Positions 3,001 to 57,310 of a DNA stretch of 64,000 nucleotides are shown here, in pieces; the stretch's first letter is position 1, and each line of letters opens with the position of its first letter. Under the pieces are notes generated by a model that was given only the letters and a program-made list of their open reading frames with translations, was not told the DNA's origin and did no database searches. The stretch is taken from contig NEEC01000002.1 of the NCBI GenBank assembly GCA_002189035.1, forward strand, positions 1,612,001-1,676,000, given 5' to 3'. The position numbers and the translations under genes are program-made. Origin of the DNA: Utricularia gibba. Taxonomy: Eukaryota > Streptophyta > Magnoliopsida > Lamiales > Lentibulariaceae.

Positions 3001-6000
3001 ACCTATACATAGGTATCAAATATGCTGACTAACATTATAAAAACACAGGATTTACTCATGATGACTAAGAGAACGACCATAGGATTTCAAAGTTTGAAGT
3101 ACATTAGTTAAAATCACCTTGATTGATATGATTCATCGAAGCTAGACATGAGATATTCGCTCATAGAAAGCAAAATAGGGCCCAAAGACATCCCTGCAGC
3201 TTCAACAGCATCATTCAGTGCCTTTTGAGAATCGGGAAATTGATATCCAGTTTCTTGTGACATTTGAATCCATCCTCCATGCACATGCTTGGACACCTAT
3301 GATGCTAAATTTTAAATATACCATGTATTGCAGGCAAGGAAAGAAAAATAATTAGTAATATCTTTTCATAAAATAAACCTCCTCTGCAATAACCACTGAT
3401 ACATTGAAAGGAATTGGACCACCGCCACCTCCACCAGCCAACAGAGGATTGAAGTGAGAGGTTGTAAAGGTTACTGATTTCTGGTCCAGATGTGGCTTCA
3501 AGCTGATCATCAAAAGGCCCAAAAGCAAGAAAACGGCAGGAATTACCAATTGAAAGACAATTGTCTTTTGATCTCGCCGAGCTGATACTGCTCTCTTTAT
3601 CAGTAATGCTTTCGAGTGTTTTAAGAAAGTAGAACTTGGAAGCATATTGCAGTAACAGCAATGCATGCCAAGCAACTTAATGACTTGAAGGGTGGCAGAA
3701 AAAAAAAAGGCACCAGCTTTCCCTATCATCGAGAGCATGCAGACAATAACTTCAATGTAGTTTTTCACTACTTTTGGAGAATAATATCTTTCTGCCGAGT
3801 TTTCATTGCCTAGTTGCTGTGCATTCGAAATAGTTTGATGATCAACAAAACATTCGGTTTCATCAAAGTCGCCTCCAGAAACTCCTAAGAATACTTCCTC
3901 CAGAGTTGTGACAGAAATTCCATAGCTCTCAATGCCAAAATGGTCACAACTCTCTTCAGTGCTAGGACTAGGTTTTTGCATGAAATGCTCTATTTCACGA
4001 AACATTTTTTCAAAGGATGATGAGGATAAAACAGGGAGCTTAAATGACAATTCGTTTCCAACCTGCAAGAAAAAGAAGAAAAAATTACACGGAAGATGAA
4101 CACTTCTTACAGATGAATTTTATACTTTTTCAAGTTTTACCTAAATACTCCAAGACAGAATAAAAATAAATACTAACAATAAATAGGATGAAAATAGGGA
4201 GCTTTCTGTACCATACTGATTATGCCACAATAAAGAGGATGAAGAAGAGATTAAGGAAATACATTGCTGACGCATATCGTGGATGGAACATGAGAATGGA
4301 TTATATCAGCCACTGCAGAACCATTCGGAGAATTCTGAAGGCAAACACAAGAAATAGAGGATTGTGAGTTTTTAGGAAATAAAAGGAATATTGCATATAG
4401 AGTAAAATGGCACATACCTTAACAAGAGTGAGGGTATAGCCAACACCATATCGTTGCTTTAAGAAAAAAGAACTGCTCAACCATGGATTGCAAGTCATTT
4501 GTGATGAACAGAAAGCAAAGCTAAAAGATATCAACAACTACATCAAACAATTTAAACAATAACATCAGGTACCTGCCGCAACATTTTAGTGAGCCATTAG
4601 CCATTATCGCTATCCTATCTCCAAGCGCATCAGCTTCATCCATGGAATGTGTAGTCAATAGTATAATTCTTCCCTTTTTCAACCGTTTGATCAACTGCCA
4701 TGTCAGCCGCATTGAGTAGGGATCCATCCCGCTAGTTGGTTCATCTAGGACAATAACCTGCAACGCATATAGATCTCATTTTAGCAACCATGGCAAGGAT
4801 TTTACCAGTTAACAACAAACACGAACCTTGCTGTTTCCTATCAACGCAATAGCAAGTGATAACTTCCTTTTCATACCCCTGATAAAGCCCTTACAAAAGT
4901 ATTTAGCTTGTCGGACAAACCCACCTTAGAATTAGAGTACAAGGAGCCCACATTAATTATCTCAAACATTAGGAATGTGTGTATTAAAGTAAGTATTCAG
5001 GCCAATAAAATTCTCAAGTATCTAAAACAACTTAAGGAAAAAAAAAAACATGATCAATTTGTAAATGTGAGGATAATAATAAACATTCTGTGTATGAAAA
5101 AATTACAAGCACAAAAAATAGCATGGGATCCTTACTTCTGCAGCCATTTCCATGACAACACTCTGCAATCTATCTTCATTCACACCCTTTATATGCGAAA
5201 ATATTTCTAAATGTTCCTTCACCTGAAAATAAAACACAGCCCCTGAATAACTATAGCTCAAAGCCCCTAACATTTATTATTAAAATGTTCCAAGATTAAA
5301 GGAAGCATATTTCATGAAAAATTAAAAAAATCAAGATAAATAGAGTAGCTTATAAATTATAAAAAAAAACACAAAAACAACAATTCCTCGGAAAAAATGG
5401 GAATTATGCAATTAAAAAAAGATACTTTAATTTTGAAAAGAAAATGAACAAGCTGCATTAGCATATCTTTTGGCAAGAAACCATTGAAATAAACAGAAAT
5501 AACAGGTGAAATCTCTCACAGTCAACTCAGGAAAAAGAATATCATTCTGGGGGCAAACACCCAAACTTTTCCGTATTTCATCCTGCAAAAAAAAAAAAAA
5601 AAAAAACAAGTAGCTAGCCTCAGAGTGGAAATTGAGGATATGTCAATTAACTCATCACTAAGAGAACATTAAACATTGTCATTATTGTTGTATTACCACA
5701 TACAAGGGATTAATTCCATTACTAGTTATCAACAATCTCACATTTTATCCTCTATATTCGAATTTTCCTTGAGCAAATGTAAGTGCAAGGATTGCCATAA
5801 TACTTCTAGAGGTGATTTTTTATATTCATTTATATTCAAGAAATATCATCACATATATATTTTGAATCTTGATTACCATGTCAGTTAAGATGCTCTTTCC
5901 ATAAATAAACGCATCTCCAGTGGTAGGGCGAACAAGCCCAACAAGCATAGAGATTGTGGTACTTTTACCAGCGCCATTGTGACCTGAAAAATAAACACAA

Positions 6001-9000
6001 TTGAAGATTTGGATAAGGAGAATCAACTCCAAAAAATATTGAAATTATCAGCCTACTTGATGGGCAATTATGAATGCAAATCTGGAGCTTTTTAGCAAGG
6101 AATATTGTGTGCAGCATGGGGAAAAAATTACTTACCAAGAAGTGCAAGGATTTGATTCTCGTACAATGTTAGCTGCAAGGAATCGACAGCACAGAACCTT
6201 GCCTTCCTTGCAGCATAGACCTTGTGTAAATTCCTTATTTGGATGCATCTGATTTTTGAAGACACGACCAACAGAAGGCATTAAGTACAAGCAATATTGA
6301 TAGATTCAAAACAACCTCGAGGAAGGGGACATTTCACCTTTGGTCCAGCTCTTGCTGCTTCATTTCAAGACTTATTTGTTCCACGGATGGTGTATATACT
6401 TCTCTTTGGGAAGAAATGGTATCTCTCTCAGTGTCACTGCCTATCAACTCAACAAGTGAACTAGAAGAAAACATTTTGTTCACGATTTTTTCCCTCCAGA
6501 ATTTCTTAGATATTGTGAAAACCAGGGGAGCCGGCAGCCATTTTCCATGTAGAAGATCTGATTCCCAATTTTTTAAAAAAACATATTTAGTTAAAAGAAA
6601 ACATATAGAGAAACCTTCAGTTCATAGTTTGAGGAAAATGAATCGAATGTAAACAAGTACCTTATGTAGATAATGTCCAGCACCATAATATAACAAAGTG
6701 TCAAGCACCATCAACAGAAGGCAGACCAAAAAGGACATTCCAGATGAATCCTGCGATTAATTTGATATTTGTACCTTTAAAACTATTTTGCATTAAAAAT
6801 TAAGATAACTTATAGAGAAAGTTCTACCCTCCAAACGTTGCTCCAACGGAGTCCAACATGTGCTTGTTCATAATCAGCAAAGTTAATTGAACCCAAAGCA
6901 AATGCAGTGGGAGAAAGAAAAGATGCCAAAACCTTAAATAGCCTATACATTAAAAAAAAAAAAAATGAACGAAAACCAATAAAATAACAAAATTGAACCA
7001 TAGATTTTGTTTTCAAAGGCGTACATAGGAACACTCTCATCGTCAACAGTGTAATAAGGGAAGAAAGCAGCTAGAAAGGCAAGTGTTCCAACGGCAACTG
7101 CAGTTTTTGCCCGTGTGAAGAATGTAGATATCAGAAACGAAAGTGTTATTGAGCTGAGTCCAAAAGAGAAGAAGTATACAAACACCAGAGATTTGTCACT
7201 ATACTTAAAAAGTGTCCCCATCGTACAAATGGTAACAATCCCAGATGAGATAGCAAACTGCAGAAGGTCATAAACACAAACAAAAGCCGTAAATAGAGAG
7301 GTTCTATAGCATTCTCCTTCATGAAGTCACACCAGTAGGTGCTAAACCTGAAATGTGTAAGTTATAAACCACGAAAGATTGAACACATTGTCATTGACAC
7401 CCATCATATAGAGGCCTTCCTTGATCTTTTGTTCCTGGAGCATCAGTTAAAAGCTCAAATTACAGGAGTTACATCACTTCAAGAAAACCACATGAGCAAA
7501 CTAAAGTTCAAAACGAGAGGCAGAAGAAGAAATTGTACCCACTACCTTTTCATAAACAGAGTAACTGATCAATCGAGATACAGGATAGAGAAAGCCTAGC
7601 AAATAACTGCGCTTATATGGACACAGAAAATATAAAATGTATTAGCCCATGACACTCAAGCAATGAATATATAAATTTTTTTCCTAAATGTGAAAAAAAG
7701 TGAAGAAATACAGAAAAAACACATACAGAACTCCCATGACTCTCTTGACAATGGACTGGAACTTGTCATCTGTGTACTCACTGGTTGGAAATGGCACAAG
7801 CCTAATTGTTTTGGGAGTAAATTGTGTCCAGAGTGTTTCTAGATTTGCCATTAAGTCCGAATTTGAAAATTCCTCCTCATTAGTCACAAAGTTTGTCAAG
7901 TTTTGCTGAGCAGAAAATATTATAAACGAATCAATTACTTGTTGAAGCTGCAAAATAGAAAAATATGAGCAGATTAGCAGTAGAAACAATTTTTAATCTG
8001 GAGATGGGAGACTCAAACAAAACTAGAGGAGATTTGAATTAAAAAAAAAAAAAGGAAGATCCATAAAGCAGGCCCAAATTCAAAATCCTGTCCAACAGCA
8101 TTCTCATGATAATTTGGAAGTTTGAGAAATATACAAAAAGGAACAAGCTAAGGGCAAAAAAAAAAAAAAAAAAAAAGGTCATTCTACAGTTCAATGAAAT
8201 GCCTTCTTGATGGTATAAGGATGATGAGATCATACAGTCAAAAATCCACTGAAGCTGTATTGCATTATTGGTATCATGTTTACACCTAATTGTAAGTCAT
8301 TGACATAAGGTCCATTCACATCCATGATAGACTTAATGTCAGGGAAACCAGAAAAAGCCCATGTATGGTTTAAGCGAATGCCATAATCAAACAACTGAGG
8401 GCCTTGATTATGAAATACAACAGCTCCCTTAATTTTGGGTTTTGTTGAATTCCTACAGGAGAAAAAGAAATATATGAGCACAGGGAAAATGACTTTTAAA
8501 AATGAGAATCATATGATGATAAATAATGTATCAACATAATACAAATGAAAGATAATCAACAGATACTTCCACAACAGAAAATTTTTTACATACACAGCCC
8601 CACATAAAAATTAATGAAAGTGAAAGAAATTGAAACTCACTTTTCTTTATCATAAGCACCATATAGATCAGAGCGTATGTAGCCCTCAAGTTCTACTTCA
8701 TCTTTGAATATTTTTGAAGTCAGCTGGATAAAACATGCTTATAATTACCATGATATCTAAAAAAAAAAAAAAAAAAAAAATAGCATATAGAATAGAAATG
8801 TAGAAAGTAACCACACATATAAGAATGCCAAATTTCGAGATTTCTGATATAAATTTACAAAAAACCACCTGCAGATGTTGATGGGTAATTATAGAAGTAA
8901 AAAAGTAAATAGAGGTCAAACACCTATCAAAAAGACGTAGAAAAATGAATAAGAACTGCAGTCTCACAGATCATCATCCATTTCTCAAGAAGCAACCTAT

Positions 9001-10260
9001 AGTCACCTTACTTTTATATAAATTAGTGCAAAACATATTTAAACCACATCCCTAAGGGAAGTGTGTCCATCCCAATCATGCGCCAACGTAAAAAATGAAA
9101 AAAAAAAAAGAGAGGCCAAAGATAGACATAAAATCAATGAAGAAAAATTGTAAAAAAAAGTAACATGCGAAAAAAATATAACAGTCCAGAAGGAATCAGT
9201 TCATGCCTTAAGAAGAGGGAATGTTTGAGATAATACTTCAATCATCATTCTTGTCTCTGATGTATCAGGTGCAAATGCCAAATATTCATGCTTGGCATAA
9301 AGCAGCTCTAAGATTTTATCAAAAGGTGCAGAGATATCACCCTTTCCTACTTCCACAAGCATACCATTTCTAATATATCTGCAAAACCCTTCATTCTGTT
9401 ATGAAAGCGACTTCTAAAATCATAAGGTTAGTTTTTTGCTTAAAAAGATACACAAGATTATTTCCACCATGAATTTGTATTCGTTAGATATGTTTTATAT
9501 GAAAAAAAAAATGAGGCATTCTCTGGTGAAAGAACAATAAAATCATCAATGCCCACGGGATGCAGAGCAGTAAGGCTTACGGCTGTGGAAGGTGTACTTG
9601 TGTGTCTACCGTAGACCTGACAGCTATAAGCAGTAACATGACAAGAGTTGGAAGTAAAACCTGTCATTAGGATAAAGATTAGATTTAGCATATGCTATCT
9701 TTCAATATTACAAAATAAAAAATGCCAAAAAAGGTGCATGAATATGTGCATTCTCGAGAAATATGCCTTGCAAGACTATTTTTCACACTAGCATAGAGGA
9801 TTTGCATACAGAAAACAACGGAAGGGATTTCTTTATTTAGCTGACATATTTTTTTTTGTTCATTCGGCAAAGGACAAAGGGATACAGATAAATTCTGAAG
9901 AACATGCAAATTAAGTGAACACGTACATAAGCTAAATACAACAACACCTCAACTCATTCATGTTATCATAAGCTTGATAACCAGGGTAAACACCTCAACA
10001 CAGAAAAGACAACATATCCGGCCCATAAGCCCTCGGTAGGAATGAGGATACTCAAAGCACAACGTAAGAGACTCAAGAAAATGAAACATCGCAAACTGCA
10101 TGTTCGTTCGTTACATATGTGACAAAGAAGAGACCTCTCCGCAGGTTACAAAGGGGTTGCGAATCTTGAGAAGCCAGTTCTTCCTGAGCATAGCTCTCAA
10201 CTGTCTCATTGATGTCCTTCTATCCTCCTCCATTTTCTCTTTAGTCTTGGTGTTCTCCAT
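1..10260 (-). CDS. ABCA1: ABCA1-type full-size ABC transporter, 3' end cut by window edge
   Basis: Subfamily A ABC transporter, a large membrane protein presumed to move lipid-like substrates. The start is the ATG at 10258-10260; exon 1 (10135-10260) carries [14 protein letters not shown], typical of plant ABCA1, and exon 2 (9581-9660) the first membrane helix. Later exons give the long N-terminal loop (9200-9380, 8230-8480), membrane exons, and nucleotide-binding domain 1: Walker [10 protein letters not shown] at about 5952-5984, signature near 4870-4890, Walker [14 protein letters not shown] at about 4724-4758. The second membrane half lies between about 3350 and 1360, and domain 2 has [10 protein letters not shown] near 748-777. 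The window ends inside the second signature (AYMLSGG, 1-74), so the C-terminus is missing. The introns carry poly-T tracts just before some exons. Odd: the domain 1 signature exon changes frame inside LSGG because a C run on the plus strand (4876-4879) is one base short. Every other exon I checked keeps its frame, so I suspect sequence error. From memory the counterpart is At2g41700. Confidence 0.93.
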
Positions 10261-11568: not shown

Positions 11569-12941
11569 ATGGGATTCGTGAGGACCACCGCCGCACAAGG
11601 AGGCGACGGCGGATTTGGCATGGGATTCCTCCTGGTTTTCTTCCCCGGAGACGACCAGGACACCCGCCGCCGACACAAATTCAACCCCTTCTGTTCACCT
11701 CTCCGAAGAGCCCTCTTTGGGACCTACTTGTCAGAGCCCAAACCACTGCATTCATCTGTCTTCTTCTATTGTTTACTGGCGCGCTTTTCTTCACCGTCTC
11801 TACTCTGCCGCCGTCGACGCACCGAATCTACGGCGAGCCCAGAAGAATGCTTGTTGAGAAAACCCGAGAGTTGCATTTGCCGCACGCCTTTCAGGGAATG
11901 GGGGCTTTGTATAGAAGAGGTACTGCCGCAATGAGCGACATCGTTGTTGTTCACGCCGTTGAGTCCCTGAGCTTGAATGAGTTGAGGCTTTTTATTCGTC
12001 TGTTTCTTCGCTCCGACGTCGCTTCGAGATCCGACCTGGTGCTCGTCTTTCCGGCGAGGAAAGCTGCAATGGACGATGTGATTCTGCAGGAGAACGATAG
12101 TTTCTTGAAACTTCTGTCACAGTACCGCTCCAATTTGAGGAACGATTCACAATTTCCGGCGAGTTTCGATGTGTCCCAGTTCCTGAAAACCAGCCGGAAA
12201 GTGAAGGAGAGAGGGGAACCCATTTGGGGTAAGAGAACTAAACCCAATTCCGGCAACAGCGGCGGCAACACTGAACCGAACCGTCCGTGTTACGGCTCCG
12301 TAGTGGGATTCGAAACAGAGGAACTCGACCCGGAAAATTCTCTATCCGGGTTCGTGGATCACGCTCCAATCACCCTAAGAAGGTGGGCTTGTTACCCGAT
12401 GCTACTCGGCCGGGTCAAACGAACCTTCAAGCACATAACGCTACTCGACCCGAAGGCAATTTGGCTAATCGGCGACCCCCTCAGCCGGTTCCGGTGCCAC
12501 CGCCCCGATTCAGTCGTCCTCTACCCGACTCTCCACCAAGGCCGCCACGTCAAGAAAGGCACGGTTTCCACCCGTCTGAAACCGGTCCACCCGGGCATCA
12601 TAATGGGCGGTTCCAAAGGCGTCCGCCGGTTATCCAACACCATGCTGATACACATCGTCAACGCGGCGATGCAGCGCAGGCGCAAGAACTCCGTGAGCGA
12701 GGCCGGCGTGTTCAATCAGCTGGTGGAGAACGAGTTCATGCTCAACGACATTCATCTGATCGTGTCGGACGAGCCGGCGGTCGAGTCGAGTTCGCTAACC
12801 GGGTCAAGTTTTTTGAACCACAGTGTGGTGAAACGGGCGAGTGGTGATCAAGATTTTTTTTACGGGGTAGCCATGAAGCACATATGCTCCTTCCCTTTAG
12901 ACGCCTTGGTTCACAGGGACTGCCACAGTATGATACAATAA
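11569..12941 (+). CDS. Plant-specific single-pass membrane protein of unknown function, with an apparent frameshift near the N-terminus
   Basis: I do not recognise a characterised function. The protein would start at the ATG at 11569 with a glycine-rich N-terminus ending in MGFLLVFFP, and continue in another frame with SPLWDLLVRAQ, a hydrophobic segment (AFICLLLLFTGALFF, about 11733-11780) and a roughly 370-residue soluble part to the stop at 12941. The two parts are joined only if one base is missing between about 11640 and 11700; the C run at 11685-11688 is a good candidate, since five Cs would restore one frame. Conserved-looking pieces include ITLLDPKAIWLIGDPL and VHPGIIMGGSKGVRRLSN, the latter possibly nucleotide- or sugar-binding, though that is a guess. 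The topology, a short cytosolic N-terminus, one anchor and a large globular domain, resembles type II Golgi enzymes, and similar plant proteins have been loosely labelled glycosyltransferase-like. The 3' end is G+C-rich compared with its flanks. Confidence 0.75.
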
Positions 12942-13800
12942 CTATATAACACATGCTACATAAATAGATTGTTTCCTCGAAAAGGGATGTATGATACATA
13001 CGGGTGTCCCAAGAATTGTCTATAAAATGTTAATGTTCTCATTCTATTTTAACTTTTATTTTATTTCATAGTATAATATATAAGATTTATATTCAATTAT
13101 ATATATAAATTATTATTTGATTAATTAATATACATATACAAACTTTGTATGATTATATTATTTACTTATATACAAATGAAATGAAAGTTAATTATATATA
13201 TACTATTACATGTTTTTTATAATATGGAAGATCTCCATTGCACTATACGTAACATATACTAATATACTATTATCAAACGATTTATTACTATTATTTTATA
13301 TGAATCATAATTAAATAAAATTTTAAAAAATGGAGAATAATATAATATTACCACGATAAATTGGAGATCAAATCTCATATTCAATCTATAACTAGAAATA
13401 TTAACTTTTAAATAATTATTTTTATTAAATGCTTAATTATAATTAAAAAATGTGTTAAATATGATTTTAAAATAATATTTACGGATAATAAAAAAAATAC
13501 AACGAGCACCATTTTAATGGGGAAGTGAATGGTGCCAGGCTGTCATCTTTGGGGTAGGTGACGGTCAGATCCCGCCGCAATTACCGAAGTTAATCAAGGG
13601 TCAGAATAGAGTTAAGGCGAATAGAATATAATATTCTTTTTATATTTTTATTATTATTTAACTACATTAAAAAATATGACATTTATTTATGACGAAAATG
13701 GTGGTGTGGCAATGCCAGCTTTAAAACGCGCACTACATGTGAGTTTCGGTCACGTGCACGTTCGAGATCATCACCTTAACAAGACCAATTTTACAGAAAA
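12942..13800. other. AT-rich intergenic DNA
   Basis: The 3' flank of the unknown membrane-protein gene. From about 13020 to 13500 the DNA is strongly AT-rich with TATATA stretches and no open frame of note. A short stretch of mixed composition (13530-13610) follows. I see no gene or named repeat. Confidence 0.5.
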
Positions 13801-13821
13801 AAAAAAAAAAAACTCATTACA

Positions 13822-13880
13822 TTTCGAATTTTGATTTTTTTTTTTGAATCAAAAATTCAATTTTTTGATCAAATTCGAAA
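13822..13880. repeat. AT-rich inverted repeat (hairpin)
   Basis: The left arm TTTCGAATTTTGAT (13822-13835) is nearly the reverse complement of the right arm GATCAAATTCGAAA (13867-13880), around a centre with a long T run and GAATCAAAAATTC. It would fold into a hairpin of about 13 pairs with a nested smaller one. It marks the switch from AT-rich DNA to the mixed-composition block on its right. Confidence 0.5.
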
Positions 13881-16083: not shown

Positions 16084-16252
16084 ATATTTTTAATTGGGCT
16101 GTGAAAATGGAAATGGGCCGCTCTTAGATCCACTGTAACTAGGGATCCAGCTCATTTACATGCTGTGGAAACTGCAAATGCCCAACGTAACCGTTTTCCC
16201 CGATCTTTAGTTCAGCCTAGGGTTTCCTGATCTGTGCTGTGTCGTATACAAG

Positions 16253-16705: not shown

Positions 16706-16709
16706 GTAA

Positions 16710-17687: not shown

Positions 17688-18950
17688 CTACGCTTTTGAT
17701 GCGCCTCCATGGTCTCTCTCGACGTGCTCCACCAGAGCAACAGGATCACGAAACCCCTTGCTGCATTTGGGCAAACATCGAGGGTTACCTTCATCACCCC
17801 ATTTCGTTCATGGACCTTTTCCACATGTTCCACAAGAGCTCCAATGTTACTAAACCGTAGCTTGCATTGTGGGCAGATCTCCACTTGGGAGCTTGTACCT
17901 GCTTTGGGGCCAGGGTTTCCAACGGCAGTGGTACGGTCTGCTGCTCCGCTTGTGGACACCGCCTGGTTAAAATCATTGCCCAGTTTGGATATCCCAGCTT
18001 CAGCTTTAGCATACAGAGAAGAAGCTACTCTAGAAAAAGCAGAAGTCCAGTTTGAACTTGAAGAAGATGTGGGTGCAGCTCGCTTCGGATCCTGGTTTCT
18101 GTCTCTGTTCATGGAGCTCATAAACTGAAAGACAGATTCTGGTTTCTTGGGCCCGGGGCAGTTGTGGTCTGCTCCAAATCGGTGTTTCAGGCAATGCTCA
18201 ATGTTACAGTCCCTGCACTTGATCTTGTTGGAGAAGGTTAGGGTCTCTTTGCACCGGGGGACAGGACACTTCTTTTTGTTCATGGCGATTGCATAGTTGG
18301 ATGGATCACACTCGACGTTCACATGCGATTCCCAGATGATGTTGGGGTCTTGATCAGGAACTAATCGAACTCCCCTCGCGCACAGTGGACAGACAACGAC
18401 AGTAACATCAGCTTTGTTGGCCTTCGGACATTGGTGACTGGTATAGCTTCTGTGATCCAGACAAAAGACCTGATCAAGAGAAATTTGAGAATCAGAACAG
18501 TGAGATGCGGGCTTCTTCTAGAGGAGGAGGATAACAGGAGGCAAACAGCATATAGCCATGAATCACTGGAATGGAAAATCCAAGCCCCCATCTCCAGTAA
18601 CCAACACAATCCTTGGAAGAAACAGCATTTGATTTGCTTCAAGGAAAAGAACATTCATTTGAAAGCCCAACAGGATACAGAGCCTCAATCGAGGACAGAA
18701 AATACTAAACGAACCGCAAAAATGAAGACCTAATTCAAAGGTTGAAGCAAACAAATCGGAAACGATTTCAGCTTCACAAGTCAAAACCATTTACTTACAC
18801 GAGCATGAATCCAATATAAAGTTCAAGGGGAAGGGTTTTGATAAACCAAACCTGTTGGCAGCAATCGCAGGTAAACGGCAAGAAATCGATCTGGCGACAT
18901 TCCTCCAAACCGCAGTGCTTTCCAAGATTCGGAAACGCGGGAGTCCCCAT
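17688..18950 (-). CDS. Zinc finger AN1 and C2H2 domain stress-associated protein (SAP11/SAP13 type)
   Basis: Stress-associated protein with two AN1 fingers and two C2H2 fingers, a plant class tied to abiotic stress responses and probably ubiquitin-linked. Exon 1 (18852-18950) starts [18 protein letters not shown] and joins in phase 0 to exon 2 (from 18469), which completes AN1 finger 1 (CDCCQQ, then [15 protein letters not shown]), AN1 finger 2 ([18 protein letters not shown], then [11 protein letters not shown]), a serine-rich linker, and C2H2 finger 1 ([22 protein letters not shown]). The second C2H2 finger is frameshifted: the T run at 17766-17768 on the plus strand is one base short. With four bases the frame reads [22 protein letters not shown] and stops at 17688-17690; as written the frame runs to 17684 with a nonsense tail. 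Length and domain order match the SAP11/13 family (At2g41835, At3g57480 from memory). Confidence 0.92.
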
Positions 18951-23023: not shown

Positions 23024-23053
23024 CTTGGCAAGCTCTAGGACTTGTAGATATTC

Positions 23054-30202: not shown

Positions 30203-32329
30203 ATGGCAACAATCTTAGGGATATTGTTTTCAGTGTCGAGGTCGTTGAGAAATGCAAGCTCTATGCGGCAAGTTCAGGTGTTTCATCAAAAAGTGATATC
30301 TTTTGGTTTTCAAAGAAACATGGGAATGTGCAAGAATCTAATCGATCACTACATCAAGTTGGGTGAATACCTCTATGCGGATTCTGTTTTCCGAAGCATA
30401 GAAACTCCATTGGACATCACGCTCTGGAATGGTTTGATGGCGGCGTACGCGAAGAGCTCCATGTTTGTTGAAGGTATTTTGCTTTTTGAAGGTTTACTGC
30501 AGTTCCCATATCTGAAACCTGACGGCTATACTTACCCGAGTTTATTGAAGGCTTGTGGTGGTTTGAGGAAAGTGGATTATGGAGAAAAGGTTCATGGCCG
30601 TTTGACGAAAGAAGGGTATTTGTCTGATGTTGTTATTGCCAGCGCTTTGATAAATGTTTATGCCAAATGTTGCCGTTTCTTCTCAGCGGTCAAGGTGTTC
30701 GACGAAATGCAGGAAAGGGACTTGGCATGTTGGAATAATGTGATATCTTGTTATTACCAAAGTGGCCAGTATGAAAAGGCGTTGGATTATTTTGAGAGGA
30801 TGAAGCACAGTGGACTGAGTCCTGACTCCGTATCGTTTACTGCAGCCATTTCATCGTGTGCCAGGCTCTTGGATAAGGAAAGAGGGAGGATGATCCATGA
30901 GGAAGTGTTAAGAAGTGGTCTTGAGTTTGACTCTTTCGTGAGTGCTGCTCTGGTTGATATGTATGGCAAAACGGGATGCCTGATGTGGGCAAAAAGGGTG
31001 TTTGATTTAATCAAAGATAAGAGCCTCGTCACATGGAATGCAATGATAGGAAGTTACAGTCACATTGGAGATACTGTTTCTTGCATGGAACTCTTAGTGA
31101 GGATGACACGAGAAGACTTCCGTCCCACATCTGAAACCATTGGCAGTTTATTGGTTTCTTGTGCAAAATCAGCACAACTGAGGCATGGAAGGTTTGTTCA
31201 CGGCTTTGTGATGAGGAACTACATGTTCCATGACATATATGTCCATATCTCATTCCTTGATTTTTATTTCAAGTGCGGATGTGTTGAAACTGCAGAAAAG
31301 TTGTTTAGAATGTTGCCTGAATCAAATATTGTTTCCTGGAATGTTATGATATCTGGTTATGTATCTGCAGGTCTCTACCTCAAAGCACTTGCTACGTTTG
31401 ATGATATGAGGGAATCGGGTATACAGCCTGATGAAATTTCAGTTACTAGCGCATTGGCAGCTTGTTCACAGATGACAACTCTAGAAAGAGGTAAAGGATT
31501 GCATGAGTACATTAAGAAGAATCAGCTTTCCAATGAAATTGTATTGGGAGCAGTTCTTGATATGTACGCCAAATGTGGTGCAGTAAAAGAAGCAGAATGC
31601 ATATTCAAGCAACTGCCTACAAAAGACTTAGTTTCATGGACTTCGATGATTGTGGCGTATGGCTCTCATGGCCGAGCACTTGATGCTCTGAACCTCTTCG
31701 ATCAAATGGTCCATGCTCGTGTATGGCCAGACAGAATTGCATTTCTTGCTGTAATTTCAGCTTGCAGTCATGGCGGTTTGGTTGATCAAGGTCTGCATTA
31801 CTTCAATCGAATGGTAGATGACTACAAGATCACTCCTACGACAGCAGAATACTCTTGTGTTATTGATCTTTTGGGCCGCGCAGGGAGACTACATGAAGCT
31901 TACAATCTTCTCCTGAAAACCACTAGCATGAAAGAGGACCCTGATTTGCTGAGCACATTGCTTGCAGCATGCAGTATGAATGGAGATATCGAGTTGGGTG
32001 ACAAAATTGGAAATCTACTGTTAGAGAAGGATCCTGATGATCAGTCAACATACACCATTCTTGAAAAGATGTATGCTTCTGCTAAGAGGTTTGAAAAAAA
32101 ACGTGAAATAAGATCCAGAATGAAAGAATTAGGCCTGAAGAAAAACCATGGCTGCAGCTGGATTGAAGTTGATGAAAAAATTCAGTCATTCGTAGCAGCA
32201 GACAAGGCGTTTGCAGAGGCTGAATCAACTTATCGGTGTTTATCTTTGCTGCATACTGACATCCAGAATGACCACGAAATGACTGTACAAGGAGCGGGAG
32301 AAAGCTCTCTTCAGTGGTTTCCCTCATAG
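30203..32329 (+). CDS. PLS-class pentatricopeptide repeat protein (E type)
   Basis: Organelle RNA-binding protein of the PLS class, expected in mitochondria or plastids in RNA editing or processing. One exon encodes 708 residues from MATILGILFSVSRSLRN. The PPR units are clear throughout, with repeated cores such as DITLWNGLMAAYAK, DLACWNNVISCYYQSG, SLVTWNAMIGSYSHIG, NIVSWNVMISGYVSAG and DLVSWTSMIVAYGSHGRALD. The tail after the last repeats (GDIELGDKIGNLLLEKDPDD, CSWIEVDEKIQSFVA) is the E domain; no DYW domain follows. From memory it resembles At5g27110, which is also intronless and of similar length. RNA target and exact compartment are not deducible. Confidence 0.93.
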   Translation: MATILGILFSVSRSLRNASSMRQVQVFHQKVISFGFQRNMGMCKNLIDHYIKLGEYLYADSVFRSIETPLDITLWNGLMAAYAKSSMFVEGILLFEGLLQFPYLKPDGYTYPSLLKACGGLRKVDYGEKVHGRLTKEGYLSDVVIASALINVYAKCCRFFSAVKVFDEMQERDLACWNNVISCYYQSGQYEKALDYFERMKHSGLSPDSVSFTAAISSCARLLDKERGRMIHEEVLRSGLEFDSFVSAALVDMYGKTGCLMWAKRVFDLIKDKSLVTWNAMIGSYSHIGDTVSCMELLVRMTREDFRPTSETIGSLLVSCAKSAQLRHGRFVHGFVMRNYMFHDIYVHISFLDFYFKCGCVETAEKLFRMLPESNIVSWNVMISGYVSAGLYLKALATFDDMRESGIQPDEISVTSALAACSQMTTLERGKGLHEYIKKNQLSNEIVLGAVLDMYAKCGAVKEAECIFKQLPTKDLVSWTSMIVAYGSHGRALDALNLFDQMVHARVWPDRIAFLAVISACSHGGLVDQGLHYFNRMVDDYKITPTTAEYSCVIDLLGRAGRLHEAYNLLLKTTSMKEDPDLLSTLLAACSMNGDIELGDKIGNLLLEKDPDDQSTYTILEKMYASAKRFEKKREIRSRMKELGLKKNHGCSWIEVDEKIQSFVAADKAFAEAESTYRCLSLLHTDIQNDHEMTVQGAGESSLQWFPS

Positions 32330-43401: not shown

Positions 43402-45205
43402 ATGGCTGGAATCGAGCTTTCCCAACCTGAGAATGCGAAGAAGAAGAAAAGCAAGTCGAAGGAAGAAGATGATAACTCCACTGTTGATTTCATGATAAAG
43501 CCGCAGAGCTTCACTCCGTCTATCGATTCCTCACAATGGCCGATCTTGCTGAAGAACTACGAGAAGCTTAATATACGAACGGGGCACTACACGCCTCTTC
43601 CCTCTGGTTGCTCTCCACTCAAGCGGCCTTTGCTGGAGTATATCAAGTATGGGATTTTAAATCTCGATAAGCCAGCGAATCCTTCGTCTCACGAAGTTGT
43701 GGCGTGGATTAAGCGCATTTTTCGCGTCGAGAAAACCGGCCATTCAGGCACGCTCGATCCTAAGGTCACAGGTAACTTGATTGTTTGTATTGATCGCGCT
43801 ACGCGTTTGGTGAAGTCGCAGCAAGGTGCAGGGAAGGAGTATGTTTGCGTTGCCCGATTGCATTCGCGTGTTGATGAGGTTTCTAAAGTTGGTAGGGCGC
43901 TAGAAACTCTGACAGGCGCGCTTTTTCAGCGTCCGCCATTGATTTCTGCTGTCAAAAGACAGCTTAGGATTAGAACCATTTATGAAAGCAAGCTGCTTGA
44001 GTATGATACCGATAGGCATTTAGTTGTTTTCTGGATTTCCTGCGAGGCGGGTACATATGTGAGGACCCTCTGTGTCCATTTGGGCCTTTTACTAGGCGTT
44101 GGTGGCCATATGCAGGAGCTGAGGAGAGTGAGATCTGGGATTCTTGGGGAATGATAATATGGTCACGATGCACGACGTAATGGATGCACAGTGGATGTAC
44201 GACAATTCCAGAGACGAGAGCTATTTGAGACGGGTAGTCATGCCTTTGGAAGTTCTGCTAACTAGTTATAAGAGGCTGGTGGTGAAGGACTCAGCCGTTA
44301 ATGCCATCTGCTACGGTGCTAAGCTGATGATTCCAGGTTTATTGAGGTTTGAGAATGACATTGAGGTGGGAGAGGAAGTGGTTTTGATGACCACCAAGGG
44401 GGAAGCCATTGCATTGGGCATCGCTGAAATGACGACTGCAGTCATGGCCACTTGTGATCATGGAACGGTTGCAAAGATCAAGCGAGTGGTCATGGATAGG
44501 GATACCTATCCTCGGAAATGGGGATTGGGTCCGAGAGCATCTTTGAAGAAAAAGCTTATTGCAGAAGGAAAACTAGACAAACATGGCAAGCCAAATGAGA
44601 ATACCCCGGCTGAATGGCGTAGGAACGTTGTTTTACCAGCTGGAGGTGATGCTGTCGTCGCTAGTCTCGCTGCACTCCCGAATACTGTGAGTTCCGAGAA
44701 TGCTGAAGTTGATGGTGGAAAGGACAAGAAGAAACACGAGGAAAAGGAAGACGCTGGTGGACATGCAGGAGGGCACAAGCGCAAACATGATGCAGTTGAT
44801 GGCAGCCCCGTGGTGGAGGCAGATGCTGCTAAAAAGATGAAGCTGCAAGGATCTGAAGAAACAGATGGAAAGGAGAAGAAAAAGAAGAAGAAGAAAGACG
44901 GTGCAGAAGAGGCTGTAGCAGTTGAGGAGGAGAAATCAGAAAAGGAGAAAAGAAAGGAGAAAAAGAAGAAAGAGGGTGGGGAAGAAGCTGTAGCAGTAGA
45001 GGAGAAATCAGAAAAGAAGAAGAAGAAGAAGGAGAGCGTAGTCGAAGCTGTAGCAGCTGAGGACAAACCAGGAAAGGAGGAGAAAGGGAAGAAGGACAAA
45101 AAGAACAAAGATGAAGAACCAGTGACCAGAACTGATCAGGATGCACCTGCCAAGAGTGAGAAGAAGGAGAAGAAGAAGAAGAAGCACAAAGTCGAGCAAG
45201 AGTAG
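43402..45205 (+). CDS. CBF5: H/ACA ribonucleoprotein pseudouridine synthase CBF5 (dyskerin), with a frame break at about 44150
   Basis: Catalytic subunit of box H/ACA snoRNPs; pseudouridylates rRNA and supports telomerase RNA, in the nucleolus. The intronless coding sequence starts [16 protein letters not shown]. The dyskerin-like N-terminal region is followed by the TruB-type domain with [19 protein letters not shown] (catalytic aspartate in TLDPK, near 43760) and [12 protein letters not shown]; the PUA domain reads [19 protein letters not shown] and [11 protein letters not shown], and a long lysine- and glutamate-rich tail (from about 44870) ends [11 protein letters not shown]. The frame breaks between RVRSGILGE and [15 protein letters not shown]: as written GAA is followed at once by TGA. 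Compared with other plants the GGGGAA at 44146-44151 should be followed by two more As, so two bases seem lost, or one G gained. The downstream half is fully open, which favours sequence error. Confidence 0.93.
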
Positions 45206-46009: not shown

Positions 46010-46353
46010 TCAGTCAGACTCGGTGGTTTGAGCCTCCTCCAGCTGAAGCCGCTCGAGGGCTTTCTGATGAGCCCAGGTCTCGATCGTTAGATCGGGCTTG
46101 GCATTGAGGCCAACTCCGAGAATCACAATCGCCAGGAAGCTAGTGATATAGCAGGGAAGCTCCCAGTCCTCCCACTTCCGAGATTCCCCGGAGGCGGCGG
46201 CGTTCTGTTGTAGGCGAATCCCTTGGGGCTCTCCTCGTGACCCGGCGTCGCCCAGCGGCTCGGACCGCCGTCACTTCCACGGGTACGAAGCGATGAGGTG
46301 ATCCGGGACCGGAGAGTGCTCGAAACGGAGGCGAAGGTGTTGAACGGCGGCAT
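46010..46353 (-). CDS. Complex I (NADH:ubiquinone oxidoreductase) ESSS-type subunit, with a 1-base frame break
   Basis: Small accessory subunit of the membrane arm of mitochondrial complex I, the plant homologue of mammalian ESSS/NDUFB11. Intronless. The start MPPFNTFASVSSTLRSRITS (ATG at 46351-46353) is followed by SRWATPGHEESPKGFAYNRT and PPPPG. The frame then breaks: the C run at 46186-46189 on the plus strand has four bases where five are needed. With one more base the second half reads ESRKWEDWELPCYITSFLA, a single membrane helix (ITSFLAIVILGVGL), then KPDLTIETWAHQKALERLQ and ends at the TGA at 46010-46012, giving about 114 residues, the family length. As written the frame runs only to 46123. 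From memory the counterparts are At2g42310 and At3g57785. A decayed copy lies head-to-head just upstream. Confidence 0.88.
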
Positions 46354-49298: not shown

Positions 49299-49495
49299 GG
49301 AAGTACATAACATTGTATGCTACAGACTCATGCATTCCTTGGATTGCGTCACTCATCACGTTGTCAAAGCTTTTTAACAGAGAGAGGCAACCTTTTTTTT
49401 GTTTCTGGTCTTTCTATTTCTGCCCCTCCTTGTGAAGTGAGGGTACCATGCGTTACAATAAGATCAGAATGGCCGAGAGTATATGCTTAAGGGAG

Positions 49496-50781
49496 TTACA
49501 TCATTGGATGGAAAATTCTCAAAATGTCAGCCAAACATAAAGCCTTGATTTGAGGAAAAGGGAAGCAGGGTGCTTCAGAGGGGCCATTGCGTATGATGAA
49601 CTGATGATGCAGCTTCGGAGAGCTGCCCTCGCTGTGTTGGGTCAAGGGAAGCACCTCATTGTAGTCACAGTTCACATTGTGGGATGCTTGTCCCAAACCA
49701 AGTTCAGGTGATGTTAGGCCAACACGATATGAATTTTGGATCCCCTTAAATCCCCATGGTTGGCAGCTGAATTGACTGAGAATTGGTGCATCAGATTCGG
49801 GATGAGTGGAAGTCGGGCCTAGATTGTCATTAAACCAATGGCTCGAAGACGGAATAATTCTCAAGTTCCAGGGCTGGTATGACAGAAGAGAGGGAGCACC
49901 AGTGGAGTCTGAAGCTGCAGTAAGACATTCCTCTGAAGATACTCTGGAAATGGAAAGAGGTTGAGATGTTGAAACTTGTAGATACTCAGATAGGGGAATC
50001 TGTGAGCTGCTGCTATGCCAAATGTTGTCAGGATACACTTGTTTAGTAGCCGCATTCACCCATGAATCTCGTACAGGGAGAGATGTGTACGAGTTCATCA
50101 AGAAACTCCCTGTTTTTCTGTGCTTATCTGCAACGCAAAACAAACATCTCTTGACAAATACTCACTTGAAATGTACACGTGAAGATAGAGCATTTGAATA
50201 TCTCACCTAACAATGAGAGGTTGGGAAATGCAGAGGAGAACAAGGAACCTGGCTGTGGCTTCCTGCGGCGCTCATTGTGACCAGCAAGCCGCCGCCGGCA
50301 GCTCCTTTTCCCTTGGTCAAACTCAGACAACTGATGAAACCTGTAAGAAGCAATTCTGGAGTGAGAAAAACCAAGTCTTGATCTTTCTTTCATCCGTTTA
50401 GAGGAACACATGAGAAGGGTACCTGCTACACTGTTGACAGAACCTTTGCTCAATTCCTGCAACAATCACCTCCGGAGACTTGGAATGAAACCCACAAACT
50501 TTGTGCCTTGAATAGTAAGGCTTAGCACTACTCAGATCTACTTCACAGCCCTGTACTTGACATCTCGGGGGCTGGTTACAGTACAAGAGCTTTGTTCTCC
50601 CTCTTTTGGCCGGAGAAGAGGAAATAGTTTCCAGCGGCGATGAAGACTTGGGGGGCAACCCAGACCCCATACCTTGAAAATACATTTTGCGACCAAATCT
50701 CAAGCCATTAAGAGAATCAGCAGCTGCACCAGAAGATGGGGAAGAAGAAGAAGAAGAAGAGGATGGGGAACCCTTTTCCAT
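49496..50781 (-). CDS. SQUAMOSA promoter-binding-like transcription factor (SPL9/SPL15 position)
   Basis: Plant SBP-box transcription factor of phase change and flowering. Three exons: 50423-50781, 50207-50340 and 49496-50128, joined in phases 2 and 1. The start [15 protein letters not shown] precedes [13 protein letters not shown]. The SBP domain (residues about 70-145) carries both zinc sites, [31 protein letters not shown] and [19 protein letters not shown], and a bipartite nuclear signal [17 protein letters not shown]. Exon 3 contains [11 protein letters not shown], the coding position of the miR156 site usually read ALSLLSNQPW. An ATG frame upstream (50832) is open but the start at 50781 matches the family. 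From gene order it lies where SPL9/SPL15 are expected, but sequence also resembles SPL13/16-type proteins, so I give no symbol. Confidence 0.92.
49880..49899 (-). promoter_or_regulatory. miR156 target site in the SPL coding sequence
   Basis: The plus strand reads TGACAGAAGAGAGGGAGCAC, equal to the common miR156 sequence except at position 14. The SPL mRNA therefore pairs at 19 of 20 positions; the usual plant SPL site also has a mismatch at this position (U there, C here). It sits in exon 3 in the normal place, so post-transcriptional control by miR156 is expected. Confidence 0.88.
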
Positions 50782-52131
50782 GGTTATATCCTCCTCCTTT
50801 GGTGCATCAGAACTCCACCTTGTGAAGAACATTTATTGGCAAGGGAAAGAACAATCATGGGGCAATAGTCTACAGCATAGTATTCTCTGCCTAATAAAGC
50901 TGTGGCACCTACCTTTCTTTTTCTACCAATTGAGTTCCTGTCACACTCCCTGGTGGTGTCTCAATAATTTAAACCAGAAGCACCTATCTTTGAAGATCAA
51001 CTGAATGGACAGGAATCGGTTCACTGCTCCCCTCATAGACATCCATACACAATTTGCCTCCTCCAATATCCCATCCCACTAGGCCCTCCATAGTTGGAGC
51101 AAAGTCCCAACTGCCAACGCAGAAGTGGGGTGCCATCCATCTCCCAAAGATGGAAGAAAGAGGAGTCAGGGAACCAAAGTTGGAAGCATTGCAACGCCAC
51201 AATGGGCGTTCAAACAATAACTGCTTTAAAGGCTTTTATCTAGACAAAGGCTGCTGCTTTGTTTTGTAAAGCAAGAACCACCTTTTGCTAGTAGTGCTGG
51301 GATACTCCTACAAAGAATCTCACTCACTCACTCTCTAATGGTACCATACTTGTAGGCCTCATCAATCTTCACCATATCTAATTAAACTTCCACTTGCACA
51401 TCAGCTATGCACTAGATTTTAAATCTGCAAAGCAAATGAAACAAGAACATTAAGCCAAGATCAGTAGCTAATGTGTCCAGGTTGATAGGTTTTGCAGATG
51501 AGATTATCAGGACTTTGAGATTTAAGAACACAAACCAATAAAATAAAGCAACTGTATCTTATTCACTAGATGCCCACAATCCAAAATAATGCCATAATAT
51601 CTGTTGAGTATCTTTCCAACTTTATAACTCCAATGACATACTTTATACTATATAAACTACAATAATTTCATCTGAAATCTTTTTTATTCGAAATTTTTCG
51701 TGAATCTTATCGTTTGAGATTAGAGAACCAGTTAAGGGGAATAACGTTTTTTTATGGATTTGATTTAATATATTTATAATATTCAATATACAGAAATGAT
51801 GAGATTAAATTTATTTATACTAAACCAATGAATTTTGTGTATTATTTGTCTTTAAAAAAAACAATGGAGAAAGGGTATATCGGTCTATTCTTAATCAGGA
51901 AAGAGTAGAAAAGCAGCCAGCTATTTGGCCCAAGGCGTAAAGCTGTTGTGGGTGCCACAAAACGCTGGATGCAGATCTGACGGCCGGGATTTTGCTAACG
52001 TAGATCTGGGGTTCATTTTAGCTGAGCCTTCTCCTCATTTGAAAACCAGTGGTTCGGCGGAGGAACAGTTACTTTTTCCCCGATCACCATTTTTGGAGAC
52101 CCCAGCCGCTCCATCGGAATTACTTACTGAG
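50782..52131. other. Divergent intergenic region between SPL and actin
   Basis: The left part should hold the SPL leader and promoter; an open frame on the minus strand at 50984-51217 has no recognised likeness. 51420-51860 is AT-rich. From about 51900 to 52131 lies the untranslated first exon of actin, ending in ACTGAG before a GTATCG donor. Confidence 0.5.
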
Positions 52132-52543
52132 GTATCGCATTGCGAGGATTCAATTCGCAGTTAGTTTTTGTTGTTTCTGTGTGGCGTGCTGCTTCTCCAT
52201 TTTCTGTTGCGTTTGATCCGTGCGAAGGATCATACATTTATTGGTTTCTGCGGTGGGATCTGGATGCCTCTCTGCATTGTTGCGTTTTGTTCAAGGATCT
52301 ACGCGTTGGTTGTTGTCATTTCATTCGATATTGAGTAATTCATTCTGCATTCGGTGTTTGGTTGGGATCTCCGGATGTGCGTGCCGCCGCATCTTTGTTG
52401 AATTGATTTGTGTTGATTCTTACGCACATCTCGTAGTCTTGGTTCTGTTCATGCCTCATCATATCCATTTTGTTTGTTGTAAGACCTGCTCTGATTTCGT
52501 TTCTCATTTTACAAGAAGATGACGTGTATTTTGCGTGTTTAGA
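52132..52543 (+). promoter_or_regulatory. Actin leader intron
   Basis: A donor at 52131/52132 (CTGAG/GTATCG) and a T-rich acceptor GTGTTTAG ending at 52543 leave 12 untranslated bases before the ATG at 52556. Plant actin genes have a leader intron at this position, and in several it boosts expression. Confidence 0.65.
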
Positions 52544-52555
52544 AAACCAAGTAGA

Positions 52556-54015
<1,460 letters not shown>

Positions 54016-54316
54016 GCTTACAGCCTGCTTGCAGAATACGGCGAGTCAGGGTGCTTCAGTCGTCCATTTGATTTCTGGTTTCCTACTGCTTTCATATTGT
54101 CATGTTATCCTGGAGCATGACCATGAAATGGTATACTGTTTTCTATCATGTACTCGACATCCTGTGTTTGTTCTGGAGTTTTCAATGAAGGCAAATGCAA
54201 CTTCATCTACTTCCATTTGTTGATTTACTCGAAGCTCAAAATTAGAGGAGGAGAACCTCATTTAGTACTTTTTTGATTCCCTGAAAAAAAAAAACAAAGA
54301 AAACTTACATCGAAAC
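54016..54316. other. Actin 3' flank
   Basis: Holds the actin 3' untranslated region, including a second GAATACG-CGAGTCAGG stretch at 54033-54049 that echoes the last coding exon (53965-53983), a small local duplication. No other feature was seen. Confidence 0.5.
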
Positions 54317-55353
54317 TCACCTTTTATCACCAAAAATGGCTTCAGCTAGTGATGGGAGTTCATTCATGGACTCGGAACTCCAGCTAGTGATATCAGGGGA
54401 AAAGAGACAAGGCATCAATTTGGAGAAGTTCAGGAGTTGAAATAGGTGGCAATTTGTGGTTTCTTGGTTTTCTGCCGACAATGCAATCTCAAAAGTCTCT
54501 TGATCAAACAGTTTTTCCCAGAGGCCACCAGATGCAAAGCATACAAATTTGCCATTCTCTTGTAGATTCTCTCTTGTGAAGTGATACCATCTTAGACCCA
54601 CGTAGAGGGATTTCTCTACTATTGAGACAAGCATCATTCTGATATCTGTGCAACATAAAAAAACAATCAGACAAAGTAGAAAGCCACAGGCGCAAATTCT
54701 GGGAGCAGAAAATGAACATGATGTACGTAAGCAAGCTATATTGTTACCGTATCTGTCGATAACCGGCTCGGAGATGAAACACCAGCCAATGAAAACTCTC
54801 CTTGGTAGTCCTCTTCAAGATCCCCGAACCAGACAATTCCATCCTTTTCTGTGCAAGTTTCTGATGTCCCTTGAACAACCACCTTCAGAAAAGAAACCTG
54901 AAGACACTCGGTACTTCAAGCGCTCTACCTCCTCATCGGAAGACAATGAAGACACTCGCGTAGGAGAATCAAGTCCGAGAAACCTGAGCAAATAAACCGA
55001 ACTATTTTTAATATATATTAAATACTCTGGTTAATTAAAATGGAGGAACCGCACTAAAAATCGAGAAAAATGCTTGGTAATAATAGTAATGGAAATTCCT
55101 ACTAACAATTAAAATGGAGGAAACGCTATTTTTAGAGCATCGGCTAAGATTACTTGGACATGCATGCGACTTTGCCGCGAAACGAGAAGCAGACAACCTC
55201 TGAGGAGCGTTCGATCTTTTCATCATCAATTTCAAGGTCTATCGCCATAGCTTCTTCATCTGCAGGTACGCAGTTCTCCATTCCCATTTCTTCTTCAATT
55301 CCTGGGATCTGGACCTTCCTGTGCTTGATCAAATCCTCTGTAAAAAATTTCAT
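54317..55353 (-). CDS. Unrecognised multi-exon plant gene, model uncertain
   Basis: I do not recognise this protein. Three coding stretches are visible on the minus strand. Exon 1 (55154-55353) starts MKFFTEDLIKHRKVQIPG and is acidic, with a good donor (CCAA/GTAATC). Exon 2 begins at 54983 with FLGLDSPTRVSSLSSDEEVE, but its end (VSFLKVVVQGTSETC and DGIVWFGDLEEDYQGEFSLAG, to a donor near 54750) is in another frame. Exon 3 (about 54640 down to 54317) reads SLYVGLRWYHFTRENLQE and GGLWEKLFDQETFEIAL. No simple splice joins exon 2 and exon 3 in frame either. This may be a wrong model, a damaged gene, or another case of the small indels seen across the window. The fragments look like coding DNA in composition and hydropathy. 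Confidence 0.4.
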
Positions 55354-55658
55354 GGTGAGTCTCAAATCTCTGTTGCATTTTCTTCCAAACAGCTTTCATT
55401 TTTCTGCCATTGCATATTCTGTAACCCAAAAAACGGGGCAACAATCTCACCGATACCCAGAAGTTTTATAACTAATCAATCTGGGGGGAAGGTGGCGCCA
55501 AAAAGATATTACTTGCTTTGTTCCCTGTTCCGAGATTTTCATTGCCAAGAATTGCACCTCCTGCATGTCTTGTAGGAACTTCTTCAACTGCTGTGTTGAT
55601 GACTCTGGTTCCCTCAAGGACACAGACCTTCACGGTTCCTGCACCCTAACATAAAATA
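55354..55658. promoter_or_regulatory. Short divergent promoter region
   Basis: About 305 bases separate the two opposed starts. It includes leader sequence for at least one of them. No clear TATA box or other motif was seen. Confidence 0.35.
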
Positions 55659-57310
55659 ATGTTGTGCTGTGGAGGTGCCGAAGAGGAACCAAGTGCAGGT
55701 CCTCCGGCTAGCCAACACACTGCCCCGCCAAAGGCCGGGAACACCTACAGTGGCAGAGTGGGGGAGGAGGTATTGCTCAAACTTCTCATCACTTCCAATC
55801 TTTTGCTCTTTCAGAATACCTCATCTTGCAAGGATGATGCGGCTGCTGGTTTTTGAAACCTCAGGTAGCGAAAGGGGGGAGCCAAGGGGCTCGGCTGCTA
55901 GAAGTGGACTGCCCCAGAAAACGCTACAGATCGATATACCTGCTCTGTCTCTGGATGAGCTGAGTAAGCTCACGGGAAATTTTGGGACTAAGGGTTTCAT
56001 AGGAGAAGGCTCTAATGGCAAGGTGTTCCGGGTGAAGTTGAGTAGTGGAGTGGAGACAGCAATCAAGAAACTGGATACCAGTTCAGCATCTGACTCTGCG
56101 GATGACTTTTCTGCTCAGGTATTGCATGCACCTCATTTCATTTGCAAGCCAAGCCCGGAGCTGCTAACACACTTACTTTCTTCTGTTCAGTTGTCCACAG
56201 TTTCCAGGCTCAAGAATGAGCATTTTGTGGGGCTCATAGGCTACTGCCTGGAAGGAAATAACCGAATCCTGGCATACGAGTTTGCAACCATGGGCTCTTT
56301 GCATGATGTCCTACATGGTAACCTCCTTGAACACAAGATAGCAGGCACAAGAACTGAATCGCTCTTCTCTGTTGCTCTCCAGGAAGAAAAGGGGTGGAAA
56401 AAGCAGAACCAGGGCCAGTCCTTGCATGGAACCAACGAGTCAAGATTGCTTATGGTGCTGCAAAAGGCCTAGAGTATCTTCATGAAAAATGCCAACCTTC
56501 GATAGTTCACCGTGACGTGAGATCCAGTAACATCCTGTTGTTCGACGATTTCGTCGCCAAAGTTGCAGACTTCAGTCTTGCGAATCAGTCATCGGATAAT
56601 ACTGCTCGTTTGCATTCAACCAGAGTCCTCGGAACTTTTGGTTACCATGCACCAGAGTCAGTTGGCACACCAACTTCCTAATCTTTTAGCATATGTTGGG
56701 AAGTGATTGATTACCTTCAATAAGTTGAGCCAAAACTGGTGGTAACATTTACCTCTTACGGTCTTCCAGATACGCCATGACAGGGCAGATAACTCAAAAA
56801 AGCGACGTCTACAGCTTCGGGGTTGTGCTTTTGGAGCTTCTGACAGGGAGGAAACCAGTTGATCATACCATGCCGAAGGGGCAGCAGAGCCTGGTTACCT
56901 GGGTTGGTATTTCATGTCTCTTAACTTCATGAGATTTGTGGGATGCTTCTTTTCCTGCGTCCAAATAATGAAACTTGCATCAGGCTACTCCAAGATTGAG
57001 TGAAGACAAGGTGAAGCAATGTGTTGATCCCAAGCTTAATGAAGAATATCCACCCAAGGCTATTGCCAAGGTCAGCACAATGCTCTGCAACTTGCCCTAA
57101 TTCAAAACCAGATCCATGTCTTTCAAAAGTCTATTTAGAAGGATACTGATAGACATCCTGGCTGGTTTGCTGTATGCTTCTCAGATGGCAGCTGTTGCCG
57201 CGCTTTGTGTGCAGTACGAAGCCGACTTTCGTCCAAACATGACCATCGTCACCAAGGCTTTACAACCACTACTCACCTCTAAACCGGCGGCTCCTGAATC
57301 TGGCGCATAA
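55659..57310 (+). CDS. PTI1-like receptor-like cytoplasmic kinase
   Basis: Cytoplasmic or membrane-associated kinase of the PTI1 family, which acts downstream of immune and oxidative-burst kinases (OXI1/Pto type). Exons: 55659-55769 ([16 protein letters not shown]), 55865-56118, 56191-56317, 56383-56656, 56770-56902, 56984-57070 and 57185-57310. MLCC gives a likely palmitoylation site. Kinase motifs: glycine loop GEGSNGKVF, lysine in AIKKL, catalytic [13 protein letters not shown] in HAPEYAMTG, and the conserved tail [14 protein letters not shown]. The DFG position reads ADFSL, a variant; PTI1 proteins more often have DFN. Exon 1 to exon 2 joins in the wrong phase as written; one more G in the run at 55760-55764 would give a [15 protein letters not shown] junction, so this is probably the same kind of base loss as in other genes here. 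All other junctions agree. From memory At2g41970 is near by position. Confidence 0.88.

What the first reader, a model, noticed from the sequence alone, without database searches (positions are those of the whole stretch)
4870..55769. Recurrent frame-breaking indels in well-conserved genes across the window
At least five clearly recognisable genes lose frame through a tiny indel where the conserved protein demands one or two more bases in a homopolymer: ABCA1 (plus-strand C run 4876-4879), the AN1/C2H2 SAP (T run 17766-17768), CBF5 (GGGGAA 44146-44151), the ESSS complex I subunit (C run 46186-46189), and probably the unknown membrane protein (C run 11685-11688); PTI1-like (G run 55760-55764) is a sixth likely case. 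Essential, otherwise well-preserved genes losing frame this often is unlikely, so consensus error is the leading idea. PPR, CCCH, actin, NAGK, LPAT2 and RFS2 coding regions show no such break.
Basis: partly seen in the sequence, partly recalled or inferred. Interest (0 to 1): 0.6.

Follow-up and report, generated by a model that had tools for sequence, protein, structure and literature searches.

The report
Assembly indel errors, not broken genes
The small frame-breaking deletions in this plant window are almost certainly base-counting errors of a long-read assembly, which recur through the whole assembly (about one per 3 kb of coding sequence), and not real damage to the genes.

Summary
The frame breaks are real in the sequence. 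CBF5 lacks two bases, the others one.

The window belongs to a 100.09 Mb, 516-contig assembly that fits the published PacBio (HGAP/Quiver) assembly of Utricularia gibba. The defect is genome-wide. In GRAS, HSP70 and HSP90 genes I found 23 more breaks; all are single-base losses, mostly in G/C runs. Five GRAS paralogs each lose one base in the G/C run that encodes the same conserved motif. Loss rises with G/C run length: 3 of 21 at length 5, 1 of 5 at 6, 4 of 4 at 7.

The direct proof of mechanism is one 2.2 kb locus that the assembly holds twice (end of contig C414, start of C416). The copies show 20 small indel differences and no clear substitution, break one gene at different places, and the longer version is always the one in frame.

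Broken genes stay under strong purifying selection around the break (CBF5 dN/dS 0.03 and 0.02), and only one ESSS copy was found. Interest is practical: gene-loss claims from this assembly need read-level checks.

The parts
4876..4879 (-). Frame break (one base short, G run on the coding strand) in the LSGG signature of ABCA1
   Evidence: Three-frame reading; ABCA structures have LSGGM without a break; no second copy by DNA search
11716..11725 (+).
   Evidence: Alignment to homeolog L004 on C2; DUF7780 match of the downstream frame
17766..17768 (-). Frame break (one base short, A run on the coding strand) in the last C2H2 finger of the AN1/C2H2 SAP gene
   Evidence: Three-frame reading; zf-AN1 match
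44146..44151 (+). Frame break (two bases short) in CBF5
   Evidence: Homeolog L002; TruB_C_2 split between frames at positions 28/30; dN/dS 0.03 and 0.02 on the two sides
46186..46189 (-). Frame break (one base short, G run on the coding strand) in the ESSS complex I subunit, the only copy found
55760..55764 (+). Frame/phase break (one base short, at or next to the G run) at the end of exon 1 of the PTI1-like kinase gene
   Evidence: Homeolog L036 has one more base; exon 2 dN/dS 0.10
30203..32329 (+). PPR gene, intact frame (comparison)
   Evidence: Open frame of 708 aa
47031..49298 (+). PPR gene, intact frame (comparison)
   Evidence: Open frame of 755 aa
34687..36672 (+). CCCH zinc finger gene, intact frame (comparison)
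   Evidence: Open frame of 661 aa
28409..29506 (-). NAGK gene, intact frame (comparison)
   Evidence: Open frame of 365 aa

Best explanation
The breaks are residual consensus errors of a long-read assembly (very probably the PacBio HGAP/Quiver assembly of Utricularia gibba). During consensus calling short homopolymers, G/C runs above all, are called one base too short, more often the longer the run. Where that happens in an exon an intact gene looks frame-shifted. Shown here: the breaks, their genome-wide recurrence, their sign and context, the lasting purifying selection, and two assembled copies of one locus that disagree by indels. Inferred: the species, the sequencing method, and that each individual window site is an error.
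For: Same locus assembled twice with 20 indel differences, no clear substitution, and different frame breaks in one gene. 29 interior breaks in window, GRAS, HSP70 and HSP90 genes, all deletions. Five GRAS paralogs lose one base in the G/C run of the same conserved motif. Loss grows with G/C run length and was not seen in A/T runs of 5-6 in the GRAS sample (lesions; run counts; Fisher p 0.001). dN/dS low around breaks. Only one ESSS copy found. Assembly size and contig lengths fit the published PacBio/HGAP assembly. HGAP/Quiver is known to leave G/C-homopolymer indels (PMC4832174).
Against: No reads were available. The doubly assembled locus is at contig ends, where coverage is probably low, so its error density does not carry over to the interior. 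The frequency, about one per 3 kb of coding DNA, is high for a Quiver-polished assembly at 88x. CBF5 lacks two bases outside a plain homopolymer and has an intact homeolog, so a real lesion there is possible. Contigs C304 and C241 share one HSP70 break, but may share reads.
Confidence: 0.95

Rival explanations
1. Real, recent pseudogenisation: slippage in homopolymers inactivated these genes, tolerated because whole-genome duplication left spare copies.
For: CBF5, DUF7780 and PTI1-like have homeologs on C2. Real pseudogenes exist in this genome: GRAS copy L083 has a stop codon, several frame breaks and 58 missing residues.
Against: Breaks also hit ESSS, the only copy found, and ABCA1 and SAP, which gave no second copy by DNA search. 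The counted genes show no stop codons and low dN/dS. All 29 breaks are deletions. The assembly disagrees with itself at a doubly assembled locus.
Confidence: 0.03
2. Some breaks are misread gene structure (unrecognised short introns or alternative splice sites).
For: GRAS copy L071, first taken for a break, is a real intron of about 75 bases. The PTI1 site lies next to a splice donor.
Against: At the other window sites the two frames abut within a few bases, with no room for an intron, and homeologs have the extra base at CBF5, DUF7780 and PTI1.
Confidence: 0.01
3. Programmed or tolerated frameshifting: the short runs are real and the protein is made by slippage during transcription or translation.
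For: Recurrence at one conserved motif in five GRAS paralogs and persistent purifying selection.
Against: Breaks lie at unrelated places in unrelated genes; 20 GRAS paralogs are in frame with the same domain; indels of the same kind lie in non-coding DNA of the doubly assembled locus.
Confidence: 0.01

Closest known systems
Residual G/C-homopolymer indels in PacBio HGAP/Quiver assemblies (Streptomyces albus SM254, PMC4832174)
   Same: One-base indels nearly all in G or C homopolymers, left after Quiver and found only with short reads.
   Different: There 205 indels in 7.2 Mb of a GC-rich bacterium at 262x; here about one per 3 kb of coding DNA in a plant assembly reported at 88x, and all interior breaks found are deletions.
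False frameshifted genes in long-read drafts (PMC12007338)
   Same: Deletion errors in homopolymers of two to eight bases make intact genes look like pseudogenes.
   Different: Those are mainly nanopore bacterial drafts, with A/T runs hit most; here G/C runs are hit most.
Real pseudogenes after whole-genome duplication
   Same: The window has a homeologous block on C2 with only part of its genes found in two copies.
   Different: The broken genes show no decay apart from the indel, unlike GRAS copy L083.

Membership tests
Long-read consensus indel error | The same genomic locus gives different run lengths in independently built consensus sequences | tested here: met
   C414 end and C416 start: 2.2 kb, 20 indels, no clear substitution; a different locus from the window's
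Long-read consensus indel error | Indels concentrate in homopolymers and rise with run length | tested here: met
   G/C runs in GRAS: 3/21, 1/5, 4/4 lost at length 5, 6, 7 (lesions; run counts)
Long-read consensus indel error | Spread over the whole assembly, independent of gene function | tested here: met
   GRAS, HSP70, HSP90 breaks on many contigs
Long-read consensus indel error | Accurate reads show the longer run at the site | not testable with these tools
   No reads held
Pseudogene | Relaxed selection in the broken gene | tested here: not met
   CBF5 dN/dS 0.03/0.02; PTI1 exon 2 0.10, DUF7780 0.12/0.27, GRAS 0.07-0.15. ABCA1, SAP and ESSS not tested for lack of a second copy
Pseudogene | Further lesions such as nonsense codons | tested here: not met
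   No stop codons in the counted GRAS genes or in the CBF5 comparison; L083 shows what a decayed copy looks like

The most novel reading that the evidence does not exclude
A minority of these short runs are real in the plant's DNA and the proteins are still made, by slippage during transcription or translation in G/C runs. The evidence does not exclude this for single sites such as CBF5 or the HSP70 break shared by C304 and C241.
Probability: 0.02. Interest if true: 0.75.

Novelty: not a real feature. Interest (0 to 1): 0.12.

Why it matters
As biology it is ordinary. In practice it matters because this assembly is used for claims about gene loss, truncation and family size in a miniature plant genome. 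If about one coding indel error per 3 kb holds genome-wide, a large share of gene models is split or shortened, and absence or truncation of a gene should not be claimed from this assembly without reads. At least one published truncation (DCL3) was checked by RACE (PMC8333044) and is not called into question here.

Tried and rejected
A GRAS frame change at a shared position in six loci looked at first like a conserved programmed shift; reading the DNA showed one real intron (L071) and five losses in the G/C run of the conserved motif. The DCL3 truncation in the literature was considered as a possible casualty and dropped because RACE supports it. C304/C241 was tried as an interior test of doubly assembled DNA; it gave one T-run difference in the first 3 kb and then diverging copies, so it is weak. 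Depletion of long G/C runs in intact genes by codon shuffling was only marginal (G/C of 5 or more: 21 seen, 30.6 expected), and A/T runs showed a similar deficit, so it is not used. Low-identity GRAS copies L073, L075, L076, L078 and L079 were not counted. dN/dS values for CBF5 taken in wrong frames were discarded and CBF5 redone; of the three frames listed for PTI1 exon 2 only the open coding one (frame 2) is used.

Full report
What is there. All six genes named in the finding lose frame through a loss of one or two bases. ABCA1 breaks inside the LSGG signature of an ABC domain; ABCA-family structures have an unbroken LSGGM there. The AN1/C2H2 protein breaks in its last zinc finger. ESSS breaks just before GESRKWEDWELPCY, and the downstream frame matches solved plant ESSS subunits at 7e-30. 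CBF5 is two bases shorter than its homeolog, and one Pfam domain, TruB_C_2, is split between the two frames at positions 28 and 30. PTI1-like exon 1 is one base shorter than its homeolog. The sixth gene carries DUF7780. The two PPR genes, the CCCH gene, NAGK and the actin exons are open.

Where it comes from. The window is C451:1612001-1676000 of a 100.09 Mb assembly in 516 contigs. Contig lengths seen put the N50 near 3.4 Mb. This fits the Utricularia gibba PacBio assembly: HGAP, 88x, contig N50 3.4 Mb (PMC5793159), with a Unitig_8 of 6.8 Mb (PMC8333044; C451 is 6,822,880 bases). The species is therefore an inference from size, contig lengths and gene content; no name was given. The review describes HGAP as assembly from PacBio reads alone with Quiver polishing; I did not see the original genome paper, so whether short reads were used later is not known.

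Homeologs. A homeologous block lies on C2 from 3.455 to 3.605 Mb. CBF5, DUF7780, PTI1-like and actin have partners there. ABCA1, SAP and ESSS gave no second copy by DNA search, and a Pfam search found ESSS only in the window. Between CBF5 and its partner dS is 0.74 upstream and 0.64 downstream of the break, and dN/dS is 0.030 and 0.023. DUF7780 gives 0.12 and 0.27 on its two sides and PTI1 exon 2 gives 0.10. The reading frame downstream has thus been maintained long after duplication.

Genome-wide survey. I asked whether the window is special, using families that are conserved and have few introns. GRAS domains: about 26 genes are unbroken in one frame. I fetched 18 other loci. Five of six that change frame at the same profile position lose one base in the G/C run coding for the conserved PGGPP-like motif; three of these are DELLA-like. 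The sixth is a real intron. Frameshift-aware alignment and reading of the DNA count 14 one-base deletions in nine well-aligned GRAS genes, no insertion and no nonsense codon. HSP70 adds six one-base deletions and HSP90 three. With the window's six this makes 29 interior breaks, all deletions, one of two bases and the rest of one base. If insertions and deletions were equally likely the chance would be 2 to the power -29, about 2e-9; with 80% deletions about 0.002 (my arithmetic). The rate in GRAS is about one per 2.7 kb, in the window about one per 4.5 kb (the coding length of the window is my estimate).

Run-length dependence. In the GRAS sample the lost fraction of G/C runs, by length before the loss, is 3 of 21 for five bases, 1 of 5 for six and 4 of 4 for seven, against 0 of 34 A/T runs of five or six (lesions; run counts; Fisher p = 0.001). 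A/T runs are hit sometimes (SAP, one site in L082, one in HSP90). The assignment of a lost base to a run is by the nearest run and is ambiguous at some sites.

Direct evidence of consensus error. The last 2.2 kb of C414 and the first 2.2 kb of C416 are one locus assembled twice: the match begins at base 1 of C416 and runs to the last base of C414. The copies differ by 20 indels of one to five bases and three mismatches next to an indel, with no clear substitution. Two alleles or duplicates old enough to differ at 20 indels should also differ by substitutions. The GRAS gene in the overlap is broken at one place in C416 and at others in C414, and in every coding case the longer version keeps the frame. 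This shows that the assembly's consensus carries such errors. Contig ends are likely poorly covered, so the density there is an upper bound.

Known background. An HGAP/Quiver assembly kept indels nearly all within G or C homopolymers (PMC4832174: 205 in 7.2 Mb, removed with Illumina reads), and long-read drafts are known to gain false frameshifted genes (PMC12007338). The frequency here is higher than in the first example. I found no held paper reporting this for the U. gibba assembly.

Verdict. Consensus error is the best explanation for the window as a whole (about 0.95). For single sites certainty is lower: highest for ESSS, ABCA1 and PTI1 (G runs; ESSS in addition is the only copy found), lower for CBF5 (two bases, not a plain homopolymer, intact homeolog). 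The decisive test is read mapping.

Noticed in passing
C414:3444157-3446356 and C416:1-2217 (L074+L111, L084+L112): Two contigs overlap at their ends by 2.2 kb and were not joined; their consensus sequences differ by 20 indels.
   Followed up: yes
C241:15000-19999 and C304:2234061-2239060 (L110, L109): The 31 kb contig C241 repeats part of C304 around an HSP70 gene almost exactly; both share the same frame break in that gene.
   Followed up: partly
L083 (C244:2105250-2106400): A GRAS copy with a stop codon, several frame breaks and missing segments: a likely real pseudogene.
   Followed up: partly
L071 (C4:1154950-1156350): A GRAS gene with a real intron of about 75 bases inside the domain, at the place where other copies show the frame break.
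   Followed up: partly
window 13046-13225: An AT-rich stretch with more than 35 dispersed matches at 74-86% identity elsewhere in the assembly; probably a small transposable element family.
   Followed up: no
window about 62016-62291: A second dispersed repeat with many matches elsewhere in the assembly.
   Followed up: no
C2:3455000-3605000 versus the window: The homeologous block is about twice as long as the window for the same genes, and several window genes gave no partner there.
   Followed up: no
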